DNA of 64,000 nt from the NCBI GenBank assembly GCA_022824225.1, contig JAJEAH010000053.1, positions 1-64,000 on the forward strand, written 5' to 3'. The position numbers and the translations under genes are program-made. Positions 7,302-31,807 of this stretch are shown one piece after another (position 1 is the first letter of the stretch; the number at the start of each line of letters is the position of its first letter). The notes below the pieces were generated by a model. It saw nothing but the letters and a program-made list of their open reading frames with translations. It was not told the origin of the DNA and did not search any database. The stretch comes from Chloroflexota bacterium. GTDB lineage: Bacteria; Chloroflexota; UBA11872; VXOZ01.

Positions 7302-8666
7302 CTAGCCGCCCAGGCTGCTCAGGAACGTATCCATGATGGTTTGCAGTTCCACCTCGGTATCCCGCAGCGTTTCCTCGATAGTCTTTTCGCCGCCCAGGGC
7401 GGTGGGCACCACGCGCAGCGTTGCCCCAAGCATCTCCGGCGCGCCGGGCGCGGGAATGACGAAACGGCGGTTTTCCATCATTTCCACCACGATCTGGAGG
7501 AACGGGTCGTTCTGGTGGTATTCCTCCTGGCGGGATACGTCCGGCCGGATCGGGAGCGTGTTGAAGTTGTGCGACCAGCGCACGTTCACGTCACCGCTGC
7601 CGAAGTATTCCAGGAACTTCCAGGCGATTTCCGGCTGCGCGCTCTGGGTGGTCAGAATCCAGGTATGGCAGCCGCCGTAGGTCATGTTGCGACCGCCGGG
7701 CGGTGTGGGCCAGTGGGCGACGTGGTACTGCAATTCCGGCACGTCGTTCTGCATGATGCTGTTGAGCGTGCTCGGCCAGTAGAGATTGGCCACGTGGCCG
7801 TCGTAGAAGAGCAAATGCGGGCGGTTGTCCACGCGGAAGTCTTCCAGCGCCTGCCAGCCACCCTGCATGTCGTAGATCTTCTTGAGCCAGCGCAGGCCCT
7901 CGATGCCCTCCGGCGTATTGATGGTCACCTTGCTGCCGTCGTCGCTCAGCGTTTCGCCGCCCAACTGCCACATGGGCACCATCCAGATGCTGTTGATCTG
8001 CCAGAGCGGGGCAAACGCGACCTGTTCGGTCACTTCACCGCTAATGCGGGTGAGCTTGGGGATGGCTTCTTCCAGCTCTTCCCAGCTTGCCGGCGGGTTC
8101 TCCACGTCCAGGCCGTTTTCCAGGTAGATGGTGTCGTTCATGTAGACCGGGCGCACGTCCGGGCCGAACGGCATGCCCTGGATCTGGCCTTGCCACGTGA
8201 GGTCGCGCTGCAACGACGGCCAGATGTCTTCTGCCCGCACGATGTCCGACACGGCCATGAAGGGACTGAGCGGTTGCCCAATCTCCAGCGCCGCCAGGGT
8301 CTGGGCCTGCCACGAGCCGGACTGGCCGATGTCCGGGCCGCTGCCCGCGGCCATCGCGGCCTGCAGTTGGGTGACGCGGTTGCCCTGGGGAATCGTGGGC
8401 TCGACGGTGATGCCGTCGTTCTGCTCCTCGAATTCCGCCACCACTTCAGCGCCCAGGCCCTCGCTGAGCGTCCAAAAGCCGGTAGTGAAGATCGTAACCG
8501 TGTACGGCTCTGCCGCGGGCGCCTCTGCCGGTGCCGCCTCATCCGCGGGCTCTTCTTCCATGGTTTCCGCGGGCATCACGGCGGTCCCGCACGCCGCCAG
8601 CAGGCCGACCGCGCCGGTCAGCGCGGCGCCGCGTAGTAGTGCTCTCCGACTGGTCTTGATACGCAT
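7302..8666 (-). CDS. ABC-type sugar solute-binding lipoprotein, SBP2
   Basis: A 454-residue family-1 extracellular solute-binding protein. I place the start at the ATG of MRIKTSRR, which has AGGGAG seven bases upstream; a longer open frame extends upstream but lacks exported-protein features. The leader has RR at 7-8, a hydrophobic core and lipobox LLAAC with Cys26, then an Ala/Glu/Pro linker. Segments typical of the family include PASWEELEEAIPKL and MWQLGGETL. It is more distant from SBP1 and SBP3 than they are from each other. Its position between two sulfatase-fold genes suggests uptake of the substrate or product of those enzymes. No cognate permease is encoded in the window. Confidence 0.92.
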   Translation of the reverse strand: MRIKTSRRALLRGAALTGAVGLLAACGTAVMPAETMEEEPADEAAPAEAPAAEPYTVTIFTTGFWTLSEGLGAEVVAEFEEQNDGITVEPTIPQGNRVTQLQAAMAAGSGPDIGQSGSWQAQTLAALEIGQPLSPFMAVSDIVRAEDIWPSLQRDLTWQGQIQGMPFGPDVRPVYMNDTIYLENGLDVENPPASWEELEEAIPKLTRISGEVTEQVAFAPLWQINSIWMVPMWQLGGETLSDDGSKVTINTPEGIEGLRWLKKIYDMQGGWQALEDFRVDNRPHLLFYDGHVANLYWPSTLNSIMQNDVPELQYHVAHWPTPPGGRNMTYGGCHTWILTTQSAQPEIAWKFLEYFGSGDVNVRWSHNFNTLPIRPDVSRQEEYHQNDPFLQIVVEMMENRRFVIPAPGAPEMLGATLRVVPTALGGEKTIEETLRDTEVELQTIMDTFLSSLGG

Positions 8667-8909
8667 CGTAATCTCCCTGTCTAATAGTTGGAGACGGCAT
8701 GAGCCACTTGGGCTGCGTTGCGGCTCACGCGCAGGCTGCTTCGCCGAGGTCTGCACTGGCTTCCCAGCGTAAGCGCAGCACGCGAGCGCAAACGGTTGTG
8801 TTGCGGTTGACAGCACTCCTTCCTGTGTCTTTCCCTGCACATGGCGCTCGCGCGACGGCGCTATCACCGCGCGCATGGGTCGGCAGATGCTGCGCGCTGG
8901 AGCCCCGGG

Positions 8910-10337
8910 CTATTCGTCCGTGACTCGTTGGACGTAGCGGCGCAACTCCAGTTCCAGGTCGTCTCCCACCTCAGGGTGCGCCGCCAGCACGTTCTGTTGG
9001 TCGTAGGGATCGTCCGGCCGGTGGTAGAGCTCCGGTTCCGTGCGTTCTTGTCCATTGAGAAAGTAGAGGTAGCGCCACTCGTGGTTTTGAATCGACCAGC
9101 AGCCCTGGTAGTGACCCGAATAGGCATAGTCGCGGACGCTCTCCGTCTCGCCGCGCAGCAACGGCAGTACGCTGACGCCGTGCATCGGCACGTCTTTTCG
9201 GCCCACAGCCAAATCTTGCGGGAAGGTGCCGGCGGTTTGCGGGGCAATGTACGCCAGCGGCAGCGGCGTGGCAATATCCAGGGCGTCCAACACCGTGGGC
9301 ATGAGGTCGGTGTGCTGCACCAGCGCCTCTACACGGGGCGGGGGCTGCGGGATGGACCCGCGCATCTCCGCCGGGAGCTTGAGCACCCACGGCACGCGCA
9401 CCAGTTCCTCGTAGTTCCACGGGCGCGCCTTGCGCACGATGCCGTGCTCGCCGAACGGCTCGCCGTGGTCGCTGGTCCACATAATTAGCGTATCGTCGTA
9501 GATGCCCAGATCGCGGATGTGGTCGAGCAGGATGCCCACCCACTTGTCCACGAACGTCACTTCACCCGCGTAGAGTTCCAGGGTCCGTTGGAGTTCCTCC
9601 GGCGTGATGTAGCCTTCCACCGGGCCCGGCACCGGATCGATGAGTTCTTGTCCGCTGTAGCCGGGGGTCTTGTACATAGACCAGAACGGCTCCGGCGGGT
9701 CCCACGGCTCATGGGGATCGAAGTAGTCCACCCACAGGAAGAGCTTGTCGCGCACGCCTTTCTCTTTCACCGCGCGGTCCAGCCACTGCATGGCGGCTTT
9801 CGTCACCTGCGGCGTGAAGAAGTCCTCTTCATCCCGGAAGTGCGCCCGGTTGCGCAGGTATTGGACGTAGTACTCTTCCCAGAGGGCGTCGCCTTGGTCG
9901 CCGCGCAGCCGGTGCCAGCGGCTGAGGTCCACGGGCACGTCTTCCGTCACCCACGGGTCGATGGAGTTGCCGCGCACGAATTCCACCGTGCTAAAGCCCC
10001 GCCCGCAGTTGAACACCGGCTTGTGCAGGTGATACGTGTCGGTGATGAGCGCGGAGGTATAGCCCTTATCCCAGAGCACTTCCGCCAGCAGGTAGTCGTC
10101 CAGCCTGAACGGCTGCCAGGGACGAAACGGGAAGTGGGTGCGGCCGGTCCAGAATACGGTGCGCGCGGGCACCGTGGGCATGCTGTCGGTATAGGCGTGC
10201 AGGAAGGCCGTGCCGTCGGCGGCCAGGCGCTCCAGGTTGGGCGTCGCCACCTGCGTGCCGTGGTAGGTGTAACAGAGCGGGTCCAGGCCGGTGTGGTCGG
10301 CGCGGAGACTATCGGTGCAGATGACGATGATATTCAT
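8910..10337 (-). CDS. Sulfatase-superfamily hydrolase with Thr at the nucleophile position
   Basis: A 475-residue member of the alkaline-phosphatase/sulfatase fold. The first metal-binding segment VICTDSLRADH (Asp9) and the later TSDHGEPFGEHG are intact. At the position of the sulfatase CxPxR signature the sequence is TVPAR (Thr55 to Arg59). Formylglycine is made only from Cys or Ser, so this is unlikely to be a formylglycine sulfatase. In the same superfamily, nucleotide pyrophosphatase/phosphodiesterases and phosphopentomutases use Thr, so phosphodiesterase or phosphatase activity is a reasonable alternative. The codon is ACG, two changes away from a Cys codon. No strong ribosome site precedes the ATG. 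The gene lies between SBP2 and SBP3. Confidence 0.85.
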   Translation of the reverse strand: MNIIVICTDSLRADHTGLDPLCYTYHGTQVATPNLERLAADGTAFLHAYTDSMPTVPARTVFWTGRTHFPFRPWQPFRLDDYLLAEVLWDKGYTSALITDTYHLHKPVFNCGRGFSTVEFVRGNSIDPWVTEDVPVDLSRWHRLRGDQGDALWEEYYVQYLRNRAHFRDEEDFFTPQVTKAAMQWLDRAVKEKGVRDKLFLWVDYFDPHEPWDPPEPFWSMYKTPGYSGQELIDPVPGPVEGYITPEELQRTLELYAGEVTFVDKWVGILLDHIRDLGIYDDTLIMWTSDHGEPFGEHGIVRKARPWNYEELVRVPWVLKLPAEMRGSIPQPPPRVEALVQHTDLMPTVLDALDIATPLPLAYIAPQTAGTFPQDLAVGRKDVPMHGVSVLPLLRGETESVRDYAYSGHYQGCWSIQNHEWRYLYFLNGQERTEPELYHRPDDPYDQQNVLAAHPEVGDDLELELRRYVQRVTDE

Positions 10338-21456: not shown

Positions 21457-21756
21457 ATGGAAGTAATATTCCGAACGAAACTGCTGAAACAGTGTTATGA
21501 GACGTCATCTGGGGCGGTGAAAAGGTGGGGGCCGGTTGTTGCACGGAAGTACATTGCCCGCGTAAACGAACTGTATGCGTTGAAGGACTTTGAGGATGCG
21601 TCCCGCGTACGGTCGCTGCGGCTGCATCACCTGAAAGGAGGCAGGCAAGGGGAGTGGTCCATCACGTTGACGGGGCGTTGGCGCCTGATCGTGACCAAGG
21701 GGGAGACTGAGGAACAAGTAACTATTGTAAATGTGAGTAACCACTATGAGGACTGA
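21457..21756 (+). CDS. higB: HigB/RelE-type toxin
   Basis: A 99-residue protein with the HigB layout: an N-terminal KLLKQCYETS-like helix, the RVNELYAL segment, then LRLHHLKGGRQGEWSI and GRWRLIV, the beta-strand core seen in HigB/RelE ribosome-dependent mRNA interferases. Length fits the family. The gene precedes and overlaps the antitoxin gene by 11 bp, the toxin-first order typical of higBA. A strong promoter with an overlapping palindrome controls both. The expected action is translation-dependent mRNA cleavage, blocked by the partner antitoxin. Confidence 0.88.
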   Translation: MEVIFRTKLLKQCYETSSGAVKRWGPVVARKYIARVNELYALKDFEDASRVRSLRLHHLKGGRQGEWSITLTGRWRLIVTKGETEEQVTIVNVSNHYED

Positions 21757-22849
21757 GACGACGCGGGCATTCTCCGATATGCCGATTCCTCCCGGTGATG
21801 TGCTCGAGGAGGAGATCGCGGAGCGCGGAATGACCCAGAAGGAGCTTGCGGCACGGCTTGGCAAGCCGGCGCAGGCTATCAACGAAATCATCAATGGCAA
21901 GAAGGCTATCACTCCGGACACCGCGATCGGTCTGGGGAAAGTGCTTGGCATCAGCCCGCACTTTTGGAATTCGCTCGAAGCCGACTACCGCATGGCGCTG
22001 GCGCGGAACCGGGAGCGAGAAGCGATTGCGGCCAACGTGCAGTGGCTGGACGCGTACCCGATCAGGGAGATGATCAAGCGCGGTTGGCTACAAGCCGGGC
22101 GGGACAAAGAGAGCAAACTAGAGGCTCTACTGAGTTTTCTTGGCGTGGCCGACGCCCAGCCACATGTGTATCAGCAAGCCATTGGCTTTCGCATCACGGA
22201 AGCGGCGCAACAGAAAATCTCCCTTGGTGCTCTAGCAGCCTGGCTCCGCAAGGGAGAGCTTGAAGGAGAAGAAGTGCAGACGGCTGCATACGACGAGGAC
22301 GCATTCTGCCAGGCCCTCGCCGCCATCAGAGGTATGACTGAAGACTCGCCGGAAAAGTTCTATCCCGCCATGCGAGCGCTCTGCGCGGAAGCGGGCGTCG
22401 CGTTTTGCGTGGTACAAGAACTCCCCAAGAGCGGAGCCAATGGTGCCACACGGTGGCTTTCGCCGCAAAAAGCTCTCATTCAAATGAGCCTCAGGCACAA
22501 GTGGGCGGACATCTTCTGGTTCTCGTTCTTCCACGAAGCATGTCATGTGCTTAGGCATCGCAGGCAGCGACAAATGTTGATAGACGGATTGGTAGCTGAC
22601 CCAAAGTTGGCAGCAATAGAGGCAGAGGCAGACCGATTCGCCAGAGATTTCCTCATTCCACCAAGGCAATGGAGCGAATTCTGCAACGCAGGCCACTTCA
22701 CGCCAAACTCCATTAGGGTATTCGCGCAATTGGTTGGGGTAGCCCCGTTCATAGTCGTGGGAAGACTACAGAAGGAAGAACTGATTGGCTATAGCCAACT
22801 CACATCACTGAAACGGCGGTACCAATGGGTGGCCGACTCAAACAGCTAG
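21746..22849 (+). CDS. HigA-like antitoxin fused to ImmA/IrrE metallopeptidase domain
   Basis: A 367-residue two-domain protein. Residues 12-75 are a HigA-type XRE helix-turn-helix (IPPGDVLEEEI, MTQKELAARLGKPAQAINEIINGKKAI). The C-terminal half has an ImmA/IrrE-type zinc peptidase motif FHEACHVLRHR (HExxH) with a following EAEADRFARDFLIP segment. The antitoxin domain should bind HigB and repress the promoter. The peptidase domain may give controlled self- or partner cleavage. Such fusions are known among XRE/COG2856 proteins. It overlaps higB by 11 bp, implying translational coupling. Both key motifs are intact. Confidence 0.9.
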   Translation: MRTETTRAFSDMPIPPGDVLEEEIAERGMTQKELAARLGKPAQAINEIINGKKAITPDTAIGLGKVLGISPHFWNSLEADYRMALARNREREAIAANVQWLDAYPIREMIKRGWLQAGRDKESKLEALLSFLGVADAQPHVYQQAIGFRITEAAQQKISLGALAAWLRKGELEGEEVQTAAYDEDAFCQALAAIRGMTEDSPEKFYPAMRALCAEAGVAFCVVQELPKSGANGATRWLSPQKALIQMSLRHKWADIFWFSFFHEACHVLRHRRQRQMLIDGLVADPKLAAIEAEADRFARDFLIPPRQWSEFCNAGHFTPNSIRVFAQLVGVAPFIVVGRLQKEELIGYSQLTSLKRRYQWVADSNS

Positions 22850-22949
22850 TGTAGATTTGTATCCTATTGCTAGGGAGGCTACAGACTTGTGTCGCACAGA
22901 TTATTAATCCAGCCGACCGAAACAAGAATGTGAATAGACAGGAGACACT

Positions 22950-23723
22950 ATGAATTTCACTCACTATGATCTTGGTCAACGCAAAGGCGGTGAGGTCGTC
23001 GAGGTTACCCTCTCCGGAAGTGCAGCCAATGTCAGTTTGCTCGACAACTCTAACCTGAGTAGCTATCGCAATGGCCGGCAACACAGATACTATGGCGGAT
23101 TAGCGAGGAAGTCTCCTATTCGGTTGTCGATTCCACGCTCAGGTCACTGGCATGTGACAGTTGACATGCAGGGCTTACGAGGGAATGTTCGTTCTTCAGC
23201 GCGGGTACTTCCGAGTGCTCTGCCTCCGCTCCGAGAGGCTCCCCTATCTCAAGTACCCAATTTGGTTCAGAATGCTACGTCTGATGATTCACCAGATACT
23301 GCCAGGGAATACGACGTGTTCATCTCACATGCATCCGAGGACAAGGACGCGATTGTACGCCCTATGGCAAATGCACTCGTTGCGGAGGGGTTAGTTGTTT
23401 GGTATGACGAATTTGAACTGCGGATAGGGGACAGTCTGCGCCGCAAGATAGACCATGGACTTGCCAAGTCTCGGGTTGGACTCGTAGTGGTATCTGAGGC
23501 ATTCATGGCAAAGGGATGGACGAACTACGAGCTTGACGGGATCATTACAAGAGTCGCAGATGGTGACCAAGTTCTACTTCCCATCTGGCATAACATCTCC
23601 AAGGATGCGATAGTCGAATACAGTCCATCTTTAGCTGATAAAGTTGCTCGCAGTACTGCAACACACACCATCGAAGAAATAGCCACAGAGATTGCGGATT
23701 TGCTTCAATCTCGTTCTCCGTAA
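22950..23723 (+). CDS. DUF1883-TIR domain protein
   Basis: A 257-residue protein. The N-terminal about 85 residues look like DUF1883 (NFTHYDLGQ..GGEVVEVTLSG.AANVSLLD), and a linker of about 35 residues leads to a TIR domain at 121-256. The TIR start YDVFISHASEDKD, the loop DEFELRIGDSL and the WTNYEL motif with the presumed NADase glutamate (Glu194) are present. Bacterial TIR domains commonly deplete NAD+ in anti-phage abortive infection. DUF1883 may be the sensor, but this is inference. The ATG is preceded by AGGAG. It lies between a toxin-antitoxin pair and a restriction-modification gene and has lower GC than the surroundings, consistent with a defence island. Confidence 0.88.
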   Translation: MNFTHYDLGQRKGGEVVEVTLSGSAANVSLLDNSNLSSYRNGRQHRYYGGLARKSPIRLSIPRSGHWHVTVDMQGLRGNVRSSARVLPSALPPLREAPLSQVPNLVQNATSDDSPDTAREYDVFISHASEDKDAIVRPMANALVAEGLVVWYDEFELRIGDSLRRKIDHGLAKSRVGLVVVSEAFMAKGWTNYELDGIITRVADGDQVLLPIWHNISKDAIVEYSPSLADKVARSTATHTIEEIATEIADLLQSRSP

Positions 23724-23753
23724 TCGCCGGTGCCAATTAGCGAGTAGCAGGGC

Positions 23754-26747
23754 CTAAGCTCTAATCCCGGCGAGCAACCTATCCACCAGTTCCTCGATCT
23801 CTTGCGCGATGCCGTTGTCTTGGAGCGCGGCGCGGATGTGCTTGCGGGCGGTGACGAAGTATATGCCTTCTTTGAGGGGAACGGCGGAGGCGACGCTGGC
23901 TGCGCGTTGGGCGGCGGTTGCGAGGCCCTGATGCAGAGGATCGTTGACGTTGAATAAGGGGATGGGCAACTCGAACATGAGCTTGTCGAAGTCTCGCGTA
24001 CCCCATTGGCCGCGGCTTTGCATGTGGGCCACACTGCTGCGTGCCGTCTCACTATTCAGGATCGTAATCAGGTACTGCGCCTCGCGTTTACCGGTTGCGG
24101 CCCAATACAACTTATGATCCAGTACAGCATTTGGATCACTAACGATGGCGGCAGCCGGCAGCGTTCCCGCTTTGGCATAGACTACCCGCACGGACGGCGT
24201 AGGAAACTGTGCGCTGAGTTCTCGATGGTAGTCCCAGCGCTCGATCAAAGACATTCTGCCGGCACTCTTTGTGTCCCACAGACGTTCGGCCTCTGTCAGC
24301 CACGCGCCGAGGTGGGGATAGCCGGCGTGTTGCGCGGCCTGGGCGTCGAGCAGGCGCTTGCCGTCAGGATCCCAAGGAATGATGCCGTCCACCGGCTGAA
24401 GCAGGCGATACGGCGCCACGGATTCACCCAGGTAGACCGGCCGCACGAACTGCTTTTCCATCTGCTGCTGCAGGGATGGGAGGCTCTTCCACGGTTCCTT
24501 CTCTTGGCGCGTGCGGCGGCTTTGCACGATGGGCGCGTCCGCCGCGCTGCCCAGCACCCCCACCGACTTAACCTCTTCCACCAAGCAGAGCATGCGGGGC
24601 ACCAGCGTTGCCCCTTGGCGAAATTTCTCCCGATACGCAGAGCCGCCAGTCAATTCCCCGCCGGTGGGCCATGGCGCGGGGGAGTGGGTGAGGTATTGCG
24701 CTGCTTGCGCCGGTGTAGCGTCGCGCCGGGGGAGCGTACCCGTATACGAGGTAACCTGTCTTGGCAACGCGCCCGTGACGCCCACGCGCCCAATGAGCAC
24801 GCAGGACGGCACGGGAAAGAGCGGCTGCACGGACTCGTCGAACGTCCAGGCTTCCTGAACCGTTGCCTGGGCCAAAACACTCTCGCCTTTCCCAAACTCG
24901 CCGCTGCGGAAACCCTCGTACTGTTTGCGGTGCAGCGTCGCGTAGGGCAAGACGAAAGCAATCACGCTGCGGCGTTCAGGCTCCTGTTCTGCATAGAGTT
25001 CCGCACAACGTGCGTAGAAATACGCAGAGAGGTCTTGGTGCGTTGCCACGCGCCCGCCGGACCAGAGATTGCGGCGCTGGCACTCATCTTTGAAGCGGTT
25101 CTGCATGGCGGAGGACATATAACGGTAAGCCAGCCACGGCGGATTGCCGATGATGACGTCGGCGCGTTGGTCTTTGGAAGAAAGCCAGGCTGGACGCGCT
25201 TGGTTCCGCACCACATAGCCCCAGATGTGGTCGCGCCCCGCTGTCCGCAGGTCGCAGAGATGCTGGTACGTTTCGGTCAACGGTTTCCAGTCCCGTTCAT
25301 TCCCTATACGGCTGCGCTGCAGCCATGCGAACAGCGAACTTGAAGAAGCGCCGCGCTCGCTGTAATCGAGCATCCTCTGGACGACGCGGTCGAAGGTAGC
25401 AATGTCCTCCACAATTGCGGCAGGAAACTGCAACTGCGGGCCATCCGGCACCTGGATGATGACGTCACGTCCGGTGATGAACCCTGCGGTATTCCACTGC
25501 AAGGAATCTCCCAAGTAGACGGGAATCGCGAGACCGCCCTGCCGACCCCTCAAGCGTTCCGGACCTAACGCCAGCAGATAGGTCACGCGGGCGATGAGGG
25601 CCGCCACCGGATGGATGTCCACACCCAGTACCTTGCGCGTGCACTCCGCCAGCGCGGCGTCATTGCCATGGCCCTTCTCATCCGCTGCGGCCAGAAAGTG
25701 ACGCACGGCATGAAAGAGAAACGTGCCGGAGCCGCAGGAGGGATCGAGCACGCGCTGTTCCAGGGGGTCCGTCACCACCTCCCGCACCATGAGATCGGCC
25801 AGCCAGTCGGGCGTGTAGTACTCGCCCAGTTGGTGACGCTGCGCCGGATCGATCAGCGACTCGTAGAGTTCCTTCAAGACGTCTTGCTGCACGTCTTGCA
25901 GGCGAAAGCGTCCGGCTTGGGCGGCGATGCGGCTTACGAGGGCGTCCCCTGCCGGCGAATCCAGTATCCAATCGAAGAAGTCCGATTCCACCGCGCCGGT
26001 GATGCTCGCGTCGCGAAAGGCCTTGCCGGAGAGCAGGTCGGCGGGCTGAGGCAGGGGAATGCCGAGCGCCCGCGTCGCCATCGTCTTGGCAACTACGGTG
26101 AGATAGGTGTGCTGGAAGAACAGATCGTCCGCGTCTACCGACTCGCCGTAGACCATTTGGAGCAAGTCCGCCCACAGCGTGCGCTTGAGCTCCACGTCCG
26201 GCGTGGATTTCACTCCCTGCCAGAGTTGCGCAAGGCTTGTGCGGGCGACGTGATAGGCAAGACTCTCGCGCCCCAGTTCCTTGCGTACGGCCTCAGGCTC
26301 AGGTGGAATCTCCGGTTGGACCGCGACGGCGGTATCGAGCCAGGCAAGAGAAGCGCCGGGGTCGTCCAGCGAAGGTGTGTGGCGGGCTAACTCAGCCAGA
26401 GAATGATCCCGCAATTCGTAGGCTATGAACTCCGCGCCATCGGTGGCGATGCCAATATAGTGTTCGCCGGTTTCCCGTTGGCGCTGGCCGATATAGCGCG
26501 CTAGTTGCTCCTCCGCATCCCGTAGCTCAACGCGCAGATTGCGCTTGAATTCCAGAATGGTGCGGCCAAGCAAGGCGTCGGCCCGGCCGCGCACCTCGCG
26601 AATTTGCTTTTCGAAGAGAACGTGCCCACTCGCCGCGCCTAGCCCCTGCACCAGCAGGTCATAGACAAGCGACCGCACCTTCTCATGCCCGGGGCGGCTG
26701 AGAATCTCGGCGACGATCTCTTGTAATCGGTCTTCATGTAGCGGCAT
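23754..26747 (-). CDS. Type IIG restriction-modification enzyme (N6-adenine methylase with nuclease domain)
   Basis: A 997-residue single-chain enzyme of the Eco57I/type IIG kind. An N-terminal PD-(D/E)XK-like core is visible (RGRADALLGRTILEFKR, Asp57, Glu66, Lys68). The methylase core follows: motif I VLDPSCGSGTF near residue 334 and motif IV NPPW near residue 534. The C-terminal about 350 residues form a target-recognition-like region. It should cleave and methylate the same asymmetric site. The ATG at 26747 is chosen; a TTG one codon earlier is also in frame. It begins 10 bp after the stop of the hydroxyacid dehydrogenase gene, on the same strand, without an obvious ribosome site. It ends 30 bp from the convergent TIR gene. 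Confidence 0.9.
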   Translation of the reverse strand: MPLHEDRLQEIVAEILSRPGHEKVRSLVYDLLVQGLGAASGHVLFEKQIREVRGRADALLGRTILEFKRNLRVELRDAEEQLARYIGQRQRETGEHYIGIATDGAEFIAYELRDHSLAELARHTPSLDDPGASLAWLDTAVAVQPEIPPEPEAVRKELGRESLAYHVARTSLAQLWQGVKSTPDVELKRTLWADLLQMVYGESVDADDLFFQHTYLTVVAKTMATRALGIPLPQPADLLSGKAFRDASITGAVESDFFDWILDSPAGDALVSRIAAQAGRFRLQDVQQDVLKELYESLIDPAQRHQLGEYYTPDWLADLMVREVVTDPLEQRVLDPSCGSGTFLFHAVRHFLAAADEKGHGNDAALAECTRKVLGVDIHPVAALIARVTYLLALGPERLRGRQGGLAIPVYLGDSLQWNTAGFITGRDVIIQVPDGPQLQFPAAIVEDIATFDRVVQRMLDYSERGASSSSLFAWLQRSRIGNERDWKPLTETYQHLCDLRTAGRDHIWGYVVRNQARPAWLSSKDQRADVIIGNPPWLAYRYMSSAMQNRFKDECQRRNLWSGGRVATHQDLSAYFYARCAELYAEQEPERRSVIAFVLPYATLHRKQYEGFRSGEFGKGESVLAQATVQEAWTFDESVQPLFPVPSCVLIGRVGVTGALPRQVTSYTGTLPRRDATPAQAAQYLTHSPAPWPTGGELTGGSAYREKFRQGATLVPRMLCLVEEVKSVGVLGSAADAPIVQSRRTRQEKEPWKSLPSLQQQMEKQFVRPVYLGESVAPYRLLQPVDGIIPWDPDGKRLLDAQAAQHAGYPHLGAWLTEAERLWDTKSAGRMSLIERWDYHRELSAQFPTPSVRVVYAKAGTLPAAAIVSDPNAVLDHKLYWAATGKREAQYLITILNSETARSSVAHMQSRGQWGTRDFDKLMFELPIPLFNVNDPLHQGLATAAQRAASVASAVPLKEGIYFVTARKHIRAALQDNGIAQEIEELVDRLLAGIRA

Positions 26748-26757
26748 CAAGGAGACT

Positions 26758-27741
26758 CTACGGCAACGTCTCGTACTCCGCCTGTTCGTCTACCGCATAC
26801 GGCGGGCGCTTGCCTTGGATTACGGCGACGACGCACTCGAAGGCCATGATGACCATGGCGTGGACGGATTCCTGCGTCACGCCGGCCACGTGGGGGAAGG
26901 GCAGGATCTTGGGGTGGGTCAAGAACGGGTGGTCTTTGGGCGGGGGTTCCACGGAGAAGACGTCGGAGGCGGCGCCGGCGAGTTGTCCCGCGTCGATAGC
27001 GGCCACCAGGGCCTCTTCGTCCACCAAGCCGCCGCGGGCGGTGTTCACGATGTAGGCCGTGGGTTTCATGCGGGCCAGCCGGTCGGCGTTCACGAACTTG
27101 CGCGTTTGCGGCGTGCTGGGCAGGTGGACTGAAATGAAGTCGGACTCGGCAAAGATCTCCTCGGGTTCGGCGAACGTGACGCCCAGTTCCGCCGCCGCGT
27201 CCGCGTCCCACATGACGTCGTAGGCCAGCACCCGCATGTTGAAGCCGCGCGCGCGGCGCGCCACCGATTTGCCGATGCGGCCCAGGCCCAGGATGCCCAG
27301 GGTCTTATTGCACACGTCCACGCCTTGCACGCGGTGGAATTCGCCGGCCCGGGCGATGGCGGCGTGTTCCACCACCTGCCGCGCCACCGCCAGAATCATG
27401 GCAAAGGCGTAGTCGGCCACGGTTTCGTTATTTGCGCCGGGGGTGATGGTGACCCACACGCCGTGCCGGGTGGCGGCGTCCACGTCGATGCGGTCGTAGC
27501 CCACGCCCACGCGAGCCACGATTTGAAGCTGCGGATGGGCGGCAAAGACCCGTTCGGTGAATTCGTCCGACCCGGCTACGAACGCGGTGACGCCGTCCAG
27601 ATTGTCGATGAGTTCCTGTTCCGTGAGCGGACGGAACACGTCCAGGGGCGGGGCCAACTCCACGCCGGCGTTGCGCAGGATGTCCCAATGCGGTCCGGGC
27701 AGGTCGAGGATGGAACGTGCGCCGATGAAAACCTTTGCCAC
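26758..27741 (-). CDS. D-isomer-specific 2-hydroxyacid dehydrogenase (SerA-like)
   Basis: A 327-residue NAD(P)-dependent dehydrogenase of the phosphoglycerate/glyoxylate/hydroxypyruvate reductase family. It contains the Rossmann motif GILGLGRIGKSVARRA, the NTARGGLVDEEAL segment with the substrate-binding Arg, the DVFSVEPPP Glu and the catalytic His in PFPHVAGVT. Length is that of the short family without an ACT domain, so a role in serine synthesis is not certain. The ATG of MAKVFIG is preceded by GAAAGGTG. It is the likely first gene of a unit with the type IIG gene, which begins 10 bp beyond its stop. Confidence 0.88.
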   Translation of the reverse strand: MAKVFIGARSILDLPGPHWDILRNAGVELAPPLDVFRPLTEQELIDNLDGVTAFVAGSDEFTERVFAAHPQLQIVARVGVGYDRIDVDAATRHGVWVTITPGANNETVADYAFAMILAVARQVVEHAAIARAGEFHRVQGVDVCNKTLGILGLGRIGKSVARRARGFNMRVLAYDVMWDADAAAELGVTFAEPEEIFAESDFISVHLPSTPQTRKFVNADRLARMKPTAYIVNTARGGLVDEEALVAAIDAGQLAGAASDVFSVEPPPKDHPFLTHPKILPFPHVAGVTQESVHAMVIMAFECVVAVIQGKRPPYAVDEQAEYETLP

Positions 27742-28050
27742 CAGTCTGTCACCTTTCTCACTCGCAGAGTCTGATCGCGCAGCTTCTCCATTATCGGCTA
27801 TGCCGCGGGCCCGTGCCTACCCGCGCGGCGCGGCGGGCCGCCAATGGATGGACGACCGCTGGGCGCGGTATTCGCACAAATCTCATCGCGTAGTGCCCCG
27901 GTCCCGCGCGGGCGGGCGTTGGGCAATGGGAAAGTTGACGATTCACAGAGCCGCGTAGTACGTTCATATTTGCGGCCGGCGCAGGTAGCTGTAGTCTGGC
28001 CACCCCAATGAAACACACGCTGCGAGCATAGCGTTTAGGATTCCCCAAGG
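27742..28050. other. Divergent intergenic region
   Basis: A spacer between the divergent dehydrogenase and QueF-like genes. A weak plus-strand promoter may be TTGACG (27935-27940) with GTACGT 17 bp downstream. No preQ1 riboswitch-like structure was recognised ahead of the QueF-like gene. Confidence 0.35.
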
Positions 28051-28527
28051 ATGAGCACGACAGAGACTGAAAACACGTCCGGCGCCAGGCGGCGGAGACG
28101 GCAGGCGCGGTACGGCGAAGAGGCCATAGAGTCTGTAACGATCCGCTATTTCCCCAATCCGGAGCCCAACCGCGACTACTTCGTGCAGATTCGCCTGCCG
28201 GAATTGACGTTCAAGGACCCGGTCTCGGGCTATCCGGACTTCGCCGTGGCGACCATGGTCTACGTGCCGGACGCACGCATCGTGGACCTGAAAACGCTGA
28301 AGCTCTATTTCAATAGCTTCCGCGACAAGTACTTCTCCCACGAGCGCATTACCAACGAGCTATTCGATGAGTTGCTGGCGGGCCTGGAGCCGCGGGGCGC
28401 GCTGCTGATGATGGAATTCAACCCGCGCGGCAACGTATCCACCCGCGTCGTCACCACCACAGACGATGCGTTTCTGGCCCGGGCGCGGGACGTACTCGAA
28501 CTGCCGGTGACCCGCCCGGCCTTCTAG
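28051..28527 (+). CDS. QueF-family protein lacking the catalytic cysteine
   Basis: A 158-residue T-fold protein aligning almost without gaps to type I QueF (NADPH-dependent preQ0 reductase of queuosine synthesis): NRDYFV, the PDFA segment (Asp63), KTLKLYFNSFR, SHE (His97, Glu98) and EFNPRGN. From the recalled Bacillus QueF sequence, catalytic Cys55 corresponds to Asp56 here (KDPVSGYPD in place of LCPKTGQPD), and the cofactor motif ESKSLK reads VDLKTLK. The codon is GAC, two changes from a Cys codon. Without the Cys the thioimide intermediate cannot form, so nitrile reduction is unlikely. It may bind a pteridine/deazapurine or serve another reaction. No other queuosine genes are near. Confidence 0.85.
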   Translation: MSTTETENTSGARRRRRQARYGEEAIESVTIRYFPNPEPNRDYFVQIRLPELTFKDPVSGYPDFAVATMVYVPDARIVDLKTLKLYFNSFRDKYFSHERITNELFDELLAGLEPRGALLMMEFNPRGNVSTRVVTTTDDAFLARARDVLELPVTRPAF

Positions 28528-29364: not shown

Positions 29365-30354
29365 ATGCGTATTACCAGATACCCTGCCCAATCACTCGAC
29401 AGGACGTTCCTGAACAGTTCCCTTGTCCAGGTCGCTCTTGTGATTGCGGTAATTGTTGCGTTGTTGGCGGTTTCGCTGCCGGCACGCATCGCTTCGGCGG
29501 CTCAATCCGGCGCGTCTGCGGCGCAGATGCAGGTTGTGATTGTACCGCCGCGTATTACCATCGCCCTTGGTGACGATGGTGCGCTGCAGTCGGTAACGAC
29601 CAGCGTGAACATCGGCGGGGCAGCCACGCCGGTGAGTATTTCTGCGGATGACCTTTCCGCACTGGGCGCGTTTGGCATTCCTGTGCCGGCGCTCGGCCTC
29701 GATGCCGCAACCACCTCGATGCTGTCCGGCGCGGGTGTGGAGCACATCCAGGTTGTGAAGGGCGTTGACGGCTTGATCGAGTTCTACGTCAATGGCGCAT
29801 ACACGATTGGCGTGAACCTCGGTGAGGACCAGGCGAACTACGAGCGCGTGCTGTCGCTGGTGGAAGGTTTCACCGGTTTCGCCATCCCGTTGAAGGACGT
29901 GCTTGTTCCTGTCGTGATCGCTTCTGGCGGTGACGTCGTCGTGACCATCGGCGAGCCCACGATTGCCGTTCGTGATGAAGGCGCGCCTTCCGGTTACGTT
30001 GCGAGCGAGCAGCAGGAAATCGAGCTTATGGCGAAGGCCAACATCAGCTACGATGCTGACGGACAACTCCATGTTCTGGGCATGTCCGCAGCCGACCTCG
30101 GTGTCGTTGGCACCGACTTGGCCCCCAGCATCATCGGTCTGATGACCGCCAATGGCATAAGCGAATTGAACGTCAAGATCAACAACGACGGCCTCTCGCT
30201 GGGCAGCAACGGTGAGATGCTGGCTGACGTCCAATTGGGCGGCGCTGACGCGCTGGGCATCCTCACTGCGTTCGCACCGGAAGCCAGTTTGGTTCTGCCT
30301 TACTTGCATCTGCGTGACCGCATTGACGTTGACCTGACGGTGAGCCTGCCGTAA
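29365..30354 (+). CDS. Unrecognised exported protein A with internally repeated domain
   Basis: A 329-residue protein with a basic N-terminus and a hydrophobic signal segment (about residues 20-46) ending in ARIASA, a plausible signal-peptidase site. The remainder lacks Cys and is Val/Gly/Asp-rich. Two similar parts are visible: the first around residues 115-170 (VEHIQVVKG..GLIEFYVNG, then a Gly-Val-Asn strand) and the second around 250-295 (ISELNVKINNDGL). The first unit closely resembles one in the next gene (LQHIQIIKG..DIDVYVNG), so the two are paralogues. I do not recognise a family. It has a strong promoter, a near-perfect ribosome site and a terminator-like hairpin after the stop, so it may be an abundant surface or periplasmic-type protein. 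Confidence 0.75.
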   Translation: MRITRYPAQSLDRTFLNSSLVQVALVIAVIVALLAVSLPARIASAAQSGASAAQMQVVIVPPRITIALGDDGALQSVTTSVNIGGAATPVSISADDLSALGAFGIPVPALGLDAATTSMLSGAGVEHIQVVKGVDGLIEFYVNGAYTIGVNLGEDQANYERVLSLVEGFTGFAIPLKDVLVPVVIASGGDVVVTIGEPTIAVRDEGAPSGYVASEQQEIELMAKANISYDADGQLHVLGMSAADLGVVGTDLAPSIIGLMTANGISELNVKINNDGLSLGSNGEMLADVQLGGADALGILTAFAPEASLVLPYLHLRDRIDVDLTVSLP

Positions 30355-30413
30355 GAAGGGTGCTGTAGTGTAGTTCAGGAAAAGCACTACGCTCCCGTCA
30401 TACGCAGGTGATG

Positions 30414-30449
30414 TGAGGGATACCCTATGCGCCCCAAGGGTATCCCTCA
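30414..30449 (+). terminator. Hairpin terminator after exported protein A
   Basis: Two perfect 13-base arms (30414-30426 and 30437-30449) with a 10-base loop, followed by a weakly T-rich stretch. It lies 60 bp after the stop codon and before the next gene, so it probably reduces read-through. Confidence 0.65.
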
Positions 30450-30532
30450 TTGCTTAGACAGAGACAAACAGTTCTTTGCATGATCGTTGAACCCGAAACC
30501 ATGAATGCATGCAAGCACAGAGAGGGAAGGCT

Positions 30533-31807
30533 ATGACCACCTGGAGACATTGGTGGGTGCCCGTACCAATTCTGTGGTTGGTCCTTGTCATCATCGCTCT
30601 AATTGTGCTGGTAGCGATCGGTGGGGGACTCACTAAGTTCGCGGCTATCCTGTTCTTGGTGAGTTTTGGCTTGCTTTTCTCACTGCTCTACCTAGGAGCG
30701 GGAATAGGCTACAAGGCAGGGCACCAACTAGGTGGAGGTACCGGTACCGGCCAAGCCATGGGCATCGTCGGTTTGGTCATCGGCGGAGTTGTCGGCTTGC
30801 TGGCTTCGCTATTGATCGTCTCGACCGGCTTTGTGAGCCATGGACTGGCAACACCATTCGCACCGGCGCGATTGACCGCCGCCCAGCCGTTGTCTGGGCC
30901 CGGCGCTCCGCCGGAGCGCGCTGAAGAGTCCATCGAAGTCTACGGCTTGCCGCAGGCTGGTATCCAATTCGCCGAGAACGGGAACATCAGCAACGTAGGA
31001 GTGAGCGTCTTACTGGCCGGCCAACAGTTCGATCTCAGTCTTTCTGAGGACGAGCTAAGCCAACTAGGCCTGGGTGAGCTCCTGTCGGCTTCAGCGATCG
31101 AATCGCTGCAGGCGGCGAATCTACAGCACATCCAGATCATCAAGGGGCCGGGCGGTGATATCGATGTTTACGTCAACGGCGGCTTTGCCGTACGCGTTTC
31201 CGTGAACTACGAACAGGCCGCGCTGGATAAGGTCATCGCGCTCGTCAAGGGGCTCGGCTATGAAGTGGCCCTGCCCGATCTCGCCGTGCCGCTGGCACTG
31301 GCCATGATTGGCACCATTGCGGTGGACTTCCCCGCAGCGGATGGCGCCGCAGCCGTTGACAAGTTCAGCGGTGAGACGTCGCAGCCGCCTGACGCGCCCG
31401 CCGCGACCGATCCACAGTATCCCCTCGTTATCGGCACGGTGCTGGATGCCAATGGCAACCTGCTTGTGCCTGACGTGGTGATCCTGGAAAACGCCGCGCC
31501 GCTGCTCGAGGCCATTGGCCTGAACCTGAGCATGCCCGGCATGCTGCCGGCAGATACGGTGTCCGGTTTGAAGGATGGCGGCCTGAGCATGATTACGGTC
31601 AAGCTCGTGCCGCAAGGCCTCGATATCTACCTTGACGACGTGCATGCTTTGACCGTCTTCTTGGGCGACGATGAGGCCCTGCAAAACCTGTCCTTGGTTG
31701 CCGCGGCCTTTGCCGGTGAAGAGGCTGGAGATATGCTGGCTACCGTCACGCCGTTCCTGGTTCGCCGGAACGAGGTGGCTGTGGACATCATCGTAGACAT
31801 TCAATAA
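30533..31807 (+). CDS. Unrecognised membrane-anchored paralogue B
   Basis: A 424-residue protein. The ATG of MTTWRHWW has AGAGGGAAGG just upstream, so I reject an earlier in-frame ATG. Three hydrophobic segments occupy roughly residues 8-110, with a Gly-rich loop (GGGTGTGQ). The remaining 310 residues should lie outside the membrane. That part carries the same repeat type as protein A: LQHIQIIKG..DIDVYVNG near residue 205, and a second unit near residues 345-375 (ISMITVKL-like, LDIYLDDVHALTVFL). The repeat pair, shared spacing and adjacency point to duplication and joint function, perhaps one secreted and one anchored partner. The family is not recognised. Confidence 0.72.
   Translation: MTTWRHWWVPVPILWLVLVIIALIVLVAIGGGLTKFAAILFLVSFGLLFSLLYLGAGIGYKAGHQLGGGTGTGQAMGIVGLVIGGVVGLLASLLIVSTGFVSHGLATPFAPARLTAAQPLSGPGAPPERAEESIEVYGLPQAGIQFAENGNISNVGVSVLLAGQQFDLSLSEDELSQLGLGELLSASAIESLQAANLQHIQIIKGPGGDIDVYVNGGFAVRVSVNYEQAALDKVIALVKGLGYEVALPDLAVPLALAMIGTIAVDFPAADGAAAVDKFSGETSQPPDAPAATDPQYPLVIGTVLDANGNLLVPDVVILENAAPLLEAIGLNLSMPGMLPADTVSGLKDGGLSMITVKLVPQGLDIYLDDVHALTVFLGDDEALQNLSLVAAAFAGEEAGDMLATVTPFLVRRNEVAVDIIVDIQ

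What the first reader, a model, noticed from the sequence alone, without database searches (positions are those of the whole stretch)
28051..28527. QueF homologue with Asp in place of the catalytic cysteine
It aligns without gaps to QueF around the active site; Cys55 is Asp56, while Asp63, His97 and Glu98 remain and the NADPH-binding ESKSLK motif is changed. Two base changes are needed to restore Cys. The nitrile reduction chemistry should be impossible, so this is a likely new function in the T-fold family.
Basis: partly seen in the sequence, partly recalled or inferred. Interest (0 to 1): 0.7.

Follow-up and report, generated by a model that had tools for sequence, protein, structure and literature searches.

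The report
QueF paralogue lacking its catalytic cysteine
A genus of Chloroflexota bacteria (several of its genomes appear to come from marine sponges) keeps, beside a normal copy of the enzyme QueF that makes a transfer-RNA building block, a second strongly conserved copy whose key reactive cysteine has become an aspartate, so it cannot do the usual reaction and very probably has a different, still unknown job.

Summary
ORF 28051-28527 (+, 158 aa) is a QueF homologue (Pfam QueF E=9e-23; above the NCBIfam preQ(1) synthase cut-off), but the catalytic Cys is Asp56 (codon GAC, 28216-28218). It is not an error or a decaying gene. All six genomes of the genus carry it with Asp and with no cysteine anywhere in the protein. 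Its T-fold core has dN/dS 0.01-0.07, lower than that of the genus's true QueF.

Every canonical Chloroflexota QueF counted outside this clade and one Ala clade has Cys there. Of the four residues a published survey used to define QueF, two are lost (Cys55 to Asp, Glu78 to Asp) and two kept (Asp62, Glu97). The genome also holds a canonical QueF (Cys, ELKSLK, Asp, Glu) beside a YhhQ-type transporter, plus TGT and QueA but no QueC or QueD: a preQ0-salvage route that does not need this protein.

The Asp form follows a very long stem branch inside a Chloroflexota QueF clade, then near-stasis, the pattern of a new function. Best reading: a neofunctionalised T-fold that binds a guanine-like base through Glu98 without covalent chemistry. 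The ligand is unproven; preQ1 is my favoured guess. A second, separate Cys-to-Ala loss occurs in another Chloroflexota genus.

The parts
28051..28527 (+). queF-D: QueF-derived T-fold protein with Asp56 in place of the catalytic Cys (158 aa)
   Evidence: present in 6/6 genomes of the genus
28216..28218 (+). codon GAC = Asp56, position of B. subtilis QueF Cys55
28237..28239 (+). codon GAC = Asp63, the QueF general acid/base Asp62, kept
28285..28308 (+). QueF motif position, DLKTLKLY for E(S/L)K(S/A)hK(L/Y)(Y/F/W); Glu78 has become Asp79, both lysines kept
28339..28344 (+). His97-Glu98; Glu98 is the purine-anchoring Glu97 of QueF, kept
28426..28431 (+). Arg126-Gly127 (PRGN), invariant in all QueFs aligned, kept
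28084..28110 (+). basic N-terminal tail (residues 12-20, ARRRRRQAR); basic in all six orthologues though its sequence varies; predicted disordered
27933..27970 (+). promoter-like block GTTGACG...TAGTACG(G/T)TCATA, about 81-118 nt before the ATG, conserved in the 5 genomes aligned while the DNA further upstream diverges
   Evidence: consensus resemblance only
26758..27741 (-). divergently transcribed D-isomer 2-hydroxyacid dehydrogenase, conserved neighbour in all six genomes (no demonstrated link)
29365..31807 (+). two downstream ORFs (29365-30354, 30509-31807) without a Pfam match, conserved neighbours in all six genomes, followed by ribosomal protein L10 (32635-33165) in the five where the contig reaches that far

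Best explanation
queF-D is a neofunctionalised paralogue of unimodular QueF. It keeps the tunnelling (T-) fold, the base-anchoring glutamate (Glu98), the general acid/base (Asp63), His97, the two motif lysines and the invariant Arg-Gly. It has lost the thiol nucleophile and so cannot form the thioimide needed to reduce preQ0. Inferred, not shown: it assembles as a ring of T-fold subunits and binds a guanine-like or pterin-like base non-covalently in the old pocket, where Asp56 and Asp63 form an acidic pair facing the 7-substituent. A cationic substituent such as the aminomethyl group of preQ1, the product of the genome's true QueF, would fit. It would then act as a binding, buffering or delivery protein, or as an enzyme using acid/base rather than covalent chemistry. 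Shown: loss of Cys, retention of the other pocket residues, strong conservation, redundancy with a true QueF. Inferred: oligomer, ligand, activity.
For: Asp56 in 6/6 orthologues with no cysteine in any of them. Positions changed from >90% conserved ones are L31I, F52L, C56D, T66V, E79D, S82T and D107E, while E51, P57, P62, D63, K84, R91, E98, P114, R126 and G127 are kept. A stem branch of about 3.1 changes per column is followed by near-stasis inside the genus. dN/dS of the core is 0.010-0.065, against 0.068-0.136 for the true QueF in the same species pairs. The true QueF lies beside a YhhQ/Vut_1 transporter in 5/5 genomes, with TGT and QueA in 6/6 and no QueC or QueD, so reductase activity is already supplied. 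A deeper-alignment AlphaFold2 model (core pLDDT >90) has its best PDB matches in B. subtilis QueF 4f8b/4fgc. 4fgc is a C55A mutant solved with preQ0 bound, so a Cys-less pocket can still hold the base.
Against: No ligand, activity or informative gene neighbourhood. The gene is not beside any queuosine gene in any genome, which weakens a preQ1 role. The AlphaFold alignment was dominated by true QueFs, so the pocket geometry is partly borrowed from them. The tree has few columns and the D stem is a long branch, so its exact sister group is unsure.
Confidence: 0.72

Rival explanations
1. Pseudoenzyme subunit: queF-D forms mixed rings with the true QueF of the same cell and tunes its activity or stability.
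For: QueF active sites lie between subunits (PMC5372742); both genes occur together in the five near-complete genomes; dead paralogues that activate a live partner are known in other families (PMC3663545, PMC5201418).
Against: The two share only 31% identity, belong to distant QueF clades, lie at separate loci, and the supposed helper is more conserved than the enzyme.
Confidence: 0.12
2. Still a nitrile reductase: Asp56 or an uncatalysed direct hydride transfer replaces the cysteine.
For: Asp63, Glu98, His97 and both motif lysines are kept; it passes the NCBIfam preQ(1) synthase cut-off, 112.9 against 86.9 bits.
Against: QueF chemistry runs through a thioimide on Cys55 (PMC5372742; QueF-L too, PMC5485725); Glu78 is also lost; the genome has a normal QueF; Cys is otherwise invariant in canonical QueFs.
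Confidence: 0.07
3. RNA-associated T-fold: the base pocket and basic tail bind tRNA or another RNA.
For: Basic, disordered N-terminal tail in all six; Synechocystis QueF was found to bind RNA in vivo (PMC12475003); QueF-L acts on preQ0-tRNA (PMC5485725).
Against: Shorter basic tails also occur in some normal Chloroflexota QueFs (L043); no direct evidence.
Confidence: 0.08
4. Decaying gene or sequencing error.
For: Pseudogenisation of duplicates is common (general knowledge).
Against: Six separately assembled genomes agree; dN/dS far below 1; conserved upstream block and synteny.
Confidence: 0.01

Closest known systems
Unimodular QueF (NADPH-dependent 7-cyano-7-deazaguanine reductase, preQ(1) synthase; B. 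subtilis YkvM type; PF14489, TIGR03139)
   Same: T-fold, gap-free alignment over residues 31-132, Asp62, His96, Glu97, both motif lysines, Arg-Gly; passes both family cut-offs
   Different: No catalytic Cys (Asp56), Glu78 of the QueF motif is Asp79, no backdoor Cys99 or Cys53; redundant with a true QueF in the same genome
QueF-L archaeosine synthase (Pyrobaculum)
   Same: A QueF-derived T-fold with a changed function
   Different: QueF-L keeps the Cys and makes a thioimide with preQ0-tRNA (PMC5485725); queF-D lacks it
N-terminal domain of bimodular QueF (PF14819)
   Same: A T-fold half that lost the catalytic Cys
   Different: PF14819 match is below cut-off (19.5 against 25.6 bits); that half carries the QueF motif while Cys and Glu lie in the other half (PMC5372742), whereas queF-D keeps the Glu and changes the motif; stand-alone protein
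GTP cyclohydrolase I / FolE
   Same: T-fold, weak sequence and fold match
   Different: 18.4 bits against a cut-off of 27; the genome has its own FolE and FolB

Membership tests
QueF (as defined in PMC5372742: Cys55, Asp62, Glu97, QueF motif with Glu78) | catalytic Cys55 | tested here: not met
   Asp56 in 6/6 orthologues, no Cys in the protein
QueF (as defined in PMC5372742: Cys55, Asp62, Glu97, QueF motif with Glu78) | Glu78 within the QueF motif E(S/L)K(S/A)hK(L/Y)(Y/F/W) | tested here: not met
   DLKTLKLY; Glu in 113/113 other sequences counted
QueF (as defined in PMC5372742: Cys55, Asp62, Glu97, QueF motif with Glu78) | Asp62 | tested here: met
   Asp63
QueF (as defined in PMC5372742: Cys55, Asp62, Glu97, QueF motif with Glu78) | substrate-anchoring Glu97 | tested here: met
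   Glu98
QueF (as defined in PMC5372742: Cys55, Asp62, Glu97, QueF motif with Glu78) | T-fold | tested here: met
   Model m7eb865a9d6b7, core pLDDT >90, best match 4f8b/4fgc; alignment rich in true QueFs
QueF (as defined in PMC5372742: Cys55, Asp62, Glu97, QueF motif with Glu78) | preQ0 reductase activity | not testable with these tools
   needs an enzyme assay
QueF sequence family (PF14489 / TIGR03139) | score above curated cut-off | tested here: met
   80.7 against 27.3 and 112.9 against 86.9 bits; automatic annotation would therefore name it preQ(1) synthase
QueF-L archaeosine synthase | thioimide-forming Cys | tested here: not met
   absent
GTP cyclohydrolase I | PF01227 cut-off | tested here: not met
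   18.4 against 27 bits
Bimodular QueF N-domain | PF14819 cut-off | tested here: not met
   19.5 against 25.6 bits

The most novel reading that the evidence does not exclude
queF-D founds a new functional class in the T-fold superfamily: a Cys-less QueF descendant that binds or transforms a 7-deazaguanine (such as preQ1) or another purine-like metabolite by acid/base rather than thioimide chemistry. Loss of the QueF thiol may have happened more than once in Chloroflexota for related reasons (Asp in this genus, Ala in another).
Probability: 0.4. Interest if true: 0.72.

Novelty: new variant of a known kind. Interest (0 to 1): 0.52.

Why it matters
QueF catalyses the only biological nitrile reduction described (PMC5372742), and its thiol was treated there as defining: sequences without it were dropped as non-QueF, so such proteins have had little chance to be studied. 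A strongly constrained Cys-less paralogue beside a working QueF is a clean natural test of what the QueF scaffold can do without its nucleophile. It also shows that curated models would name such proteins 'preQ(1) synthase', with consequences for automatic queuosine-pathway reconstruction.

Tried and rejected
Related viral loci: none for the Asp form or for one Chloroflexota QueF used as query. Phage and plasmid matches are ordinary, under 43% identity. About 150 viral-contig QueF hits pulled by motif nearly all keep Cys, exceptions being bimodular N-halves and one divergent phage protein. preQ1 riboswitch or other RNA at the locus: none, only one tRNA. AlphaFold2 with the five orthologues alone was useless (pLDDT 39.8) and was replaced by a 59-sequence alignment. 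Replacement of a missing folate T-fold enzyme: rejected, FolE and FolB are present in 6/6. De novo preQ0 role: QueC and QueD absent. One origin for the Asp and Ala forms: not favoured by the tree, but not rejected (p-AU 0.121). Gene neighbourhoods of the Ala form and of the g109 form showed no obvious queuosine gene among the ORFs listed by eye. One pairwise alignment used wrong coordinates and was ignored. Laying the whole genome in the script box was not available.

Full report
What is there. ORF 28051-28527 on the + strand encodes 158 residues. It matches Pfam QueF (E 9e-23, 80.7 bits against 27.3) and NCBIfam TIGR03139 preQ(1) synthase (112.9 against 86.9). It aligns without a gap over residues 31-132 to B. 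subtilis QueF in the PDB. At the catalytic Cys55 it has Asp56 (GAC, 28216-28218). Asp62, His96 and Glu97 are present as Asp63, His97 and Glu98; ESKSLKLY is DLKTLKLY. The motif change is mild, because both lysines survive.

It is real and conserved. The genome has 3.37 Mb in 87 contigs. Of the six genomes held for its order, all one genus, all carry the gene; four public contigs of the same lineage are labelled Chloroflexi/Chloroflexota MAGs, at least two of which I recognise from the isolate names as sponge-derived (my own knowledge). All six proteins have Asp56 and not one cysteine. Synteny is kept in the five other genomes as far as their contigs reach: a divergent D-2-hydroxyacid dehydrogenase, queF-D, two ORFs without Pfam match, then ribosomal protein L10. 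About 81-118 bases before the ATG lies a promoter-like block (TTGACG...TAGTACG(G/T)TCATA) conserved in five aligned genomes while the DNA further upstream diverges. dN/dS over the T-fold core is 0.010-0.065. In the same species pairs the true QueF gives 0.068-0.136; the Asp form is clearly lower in nine of ten pairs and about equal in the tenth.

How unusual is the residue? I read QueF homologues from over 100 Chloroflexota genomes. In the residue count, 103 canonical-type and 10 'QEH'-type sequences all have Cys and all have Glu at motif position 78. The Asp form was found only in this genus; the profile of the Asp form scores it at 334-352 bits and everything else below 123. In an alignment with phage QueFs, E51, P57, P62, D63, K84, E98, R126 and G127 are invariant, including in the Asp form. 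So the changes fall on the nucleophile and on motif residues, while the rest of the pocket is held.

Origin. In a tree of 123 sequences the six Asp forms are one clade (100/100) on a stem of about 3.1 changes per column, inside a Chloroflexota clade whose normal members have RGN and, among the nearest, TCKCPR(S/T)GYPDFA; end branches within the genus are 0-0.03. A long stem followed by stasis is what a change of function looks like; a decaying gene would not look so. The long branch makes the exact sister group unsure. Reduced trees gave the same Asp clade.

The genome's real queuosine route. A second queF lies on another contig (L001 1315-1755) with Cys, ELKSLK, Asp62 and Glu97. It has VQEH where most have FHE, but this is a recognisable subclass seen in five other Chloroflexota genomes. 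It meets all four published defining residues. A YhhQ/Vut_1 (queuosine-precursor) transporter gene is its neighbour in 5/5 genomes. TGT and QueA are present in 6/6; QueC gives only short, marginal matches and QueD none. This is the layout expected for salvage of preQ0, its reduction by the true QueF, and insertion into tRNA (pathway knowledge: PMC5372742, PMC5372724). FolE and FolB are present too. Nothing tested in these pathways is left vacant for queF-D.

Membership. PMC5372742 screened about 3500 sequences for Cys55, Asp62, Glu97 and the motif with Glu78 and excluded any lacking one as non-QueF. queF-D fails two (Cys55, Glu78) and meets two. It is a member of the QueF sequence family and descends from QueF, but is not a QueF by that definition. 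Curated automatic models would nevertheless call it preQ(1) synthase.

Structure. With only the orthologues AlphaFold2 failed. With 59 sequences (54 of them from viral contigs) the core is predicted above pLDDT 90 and the first 18 residues are disordered. Best PDB matches are B. subtilis QueF 4f8b and 4fgc (TM 0.68-0.70 on the query), then GTP cyclohydrolase I and QueF-L. Since the alignment consisted of QueFs this supports the fold, not the pocket detail. 4fgc is a C55A mutant with preQ0 bound, showing that a pocket without the thiol can hold the base.

Mechanism. Shown by sequence: no thiol, so no thioimide, so no known QueF or QueF-L chemistry. Inferred: base binding through Glu98; an acidic pair Asp56/Asp63 at the place where the nitrile carbon sits, which would suit a cationic 7-substituent such as the aminomethyl of preQ1; ring assembly as in QueF. 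I put about 0.72 on 'functional, not a preQ0 reductase, non-covalent base-binding T-fold' and only about 0.2 on preQ1 as the ligand.

Limits. One genome per species and one phylum were surveyed, so Asp forms elsewhere may exist. The genomes are probably all metagenome assemblies. No activity data. The sponge link rests on isolate names.

In passing, the catalytic Cys is also lost, to Ala, in nine of fifteen genomes of one genus (code g27) of another Chloroflexota family, with the other active-site residues and Cys53 kept, and apparently as the only QueF. These two losses suggest that Cys-less QueFs are under-reported.

Noticed in passing
L169-L175, L180, L183 (genomes G407, G408, G324, G404, G405, G188, G056, G401, G365): Apparently the only QueF of these Chloroflexota genomes (genus code g27) has Ala at the catalytic Cys (FTCLAP[DE]S[GS]FPDFA) with ELKSLK, Asp62, His-Glu and Cys53 kept; sister genomes keep Cys. 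TGT and QueA are present in the four such genomes tested. Possible moved nucleophile (Cys53) or lost activity.
   Followed up: partly
L072 456-830 (- strand), L074 321-803 (- strand): Very divergent QueF-like T-fold (FRCRYEMEPDKTNFAVMT...FDFPSFMAYLRSFEDAPMSLESAVNRIL) in genus code g109, whose genomes also carry a second TGT-like gene; the two are not adjacent.
   Followed up: partly
L324 7403-7747 (- strand): Divergent Cys-less QueF-like T-fold in a viral contig, next to a normal-looking QueF homologue at 8610-9107.
   Followed up: no
L001 1315-1755 and orthologues: The genus's true QueF belongs to a 'QEH' subclass in which the active-site His-Glu reads Gln-Glu-His; its His96 equivalent is Gln.
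   Followed up: partly
window 21457-26750: Patchily conserved island: short ORF plus HTH/IrrE-type protein, DUF1883-TIR protein, and an MmeI/Eco57I-like N6 methyltransferase; absent or incomplete in some sister genomes.
   Followed up: partly
window 29365-31807: Two neighbouring ORFs of similar make-up, no Pfam match, 80-88% identical across the genus: function unknown.
   Followed up: no
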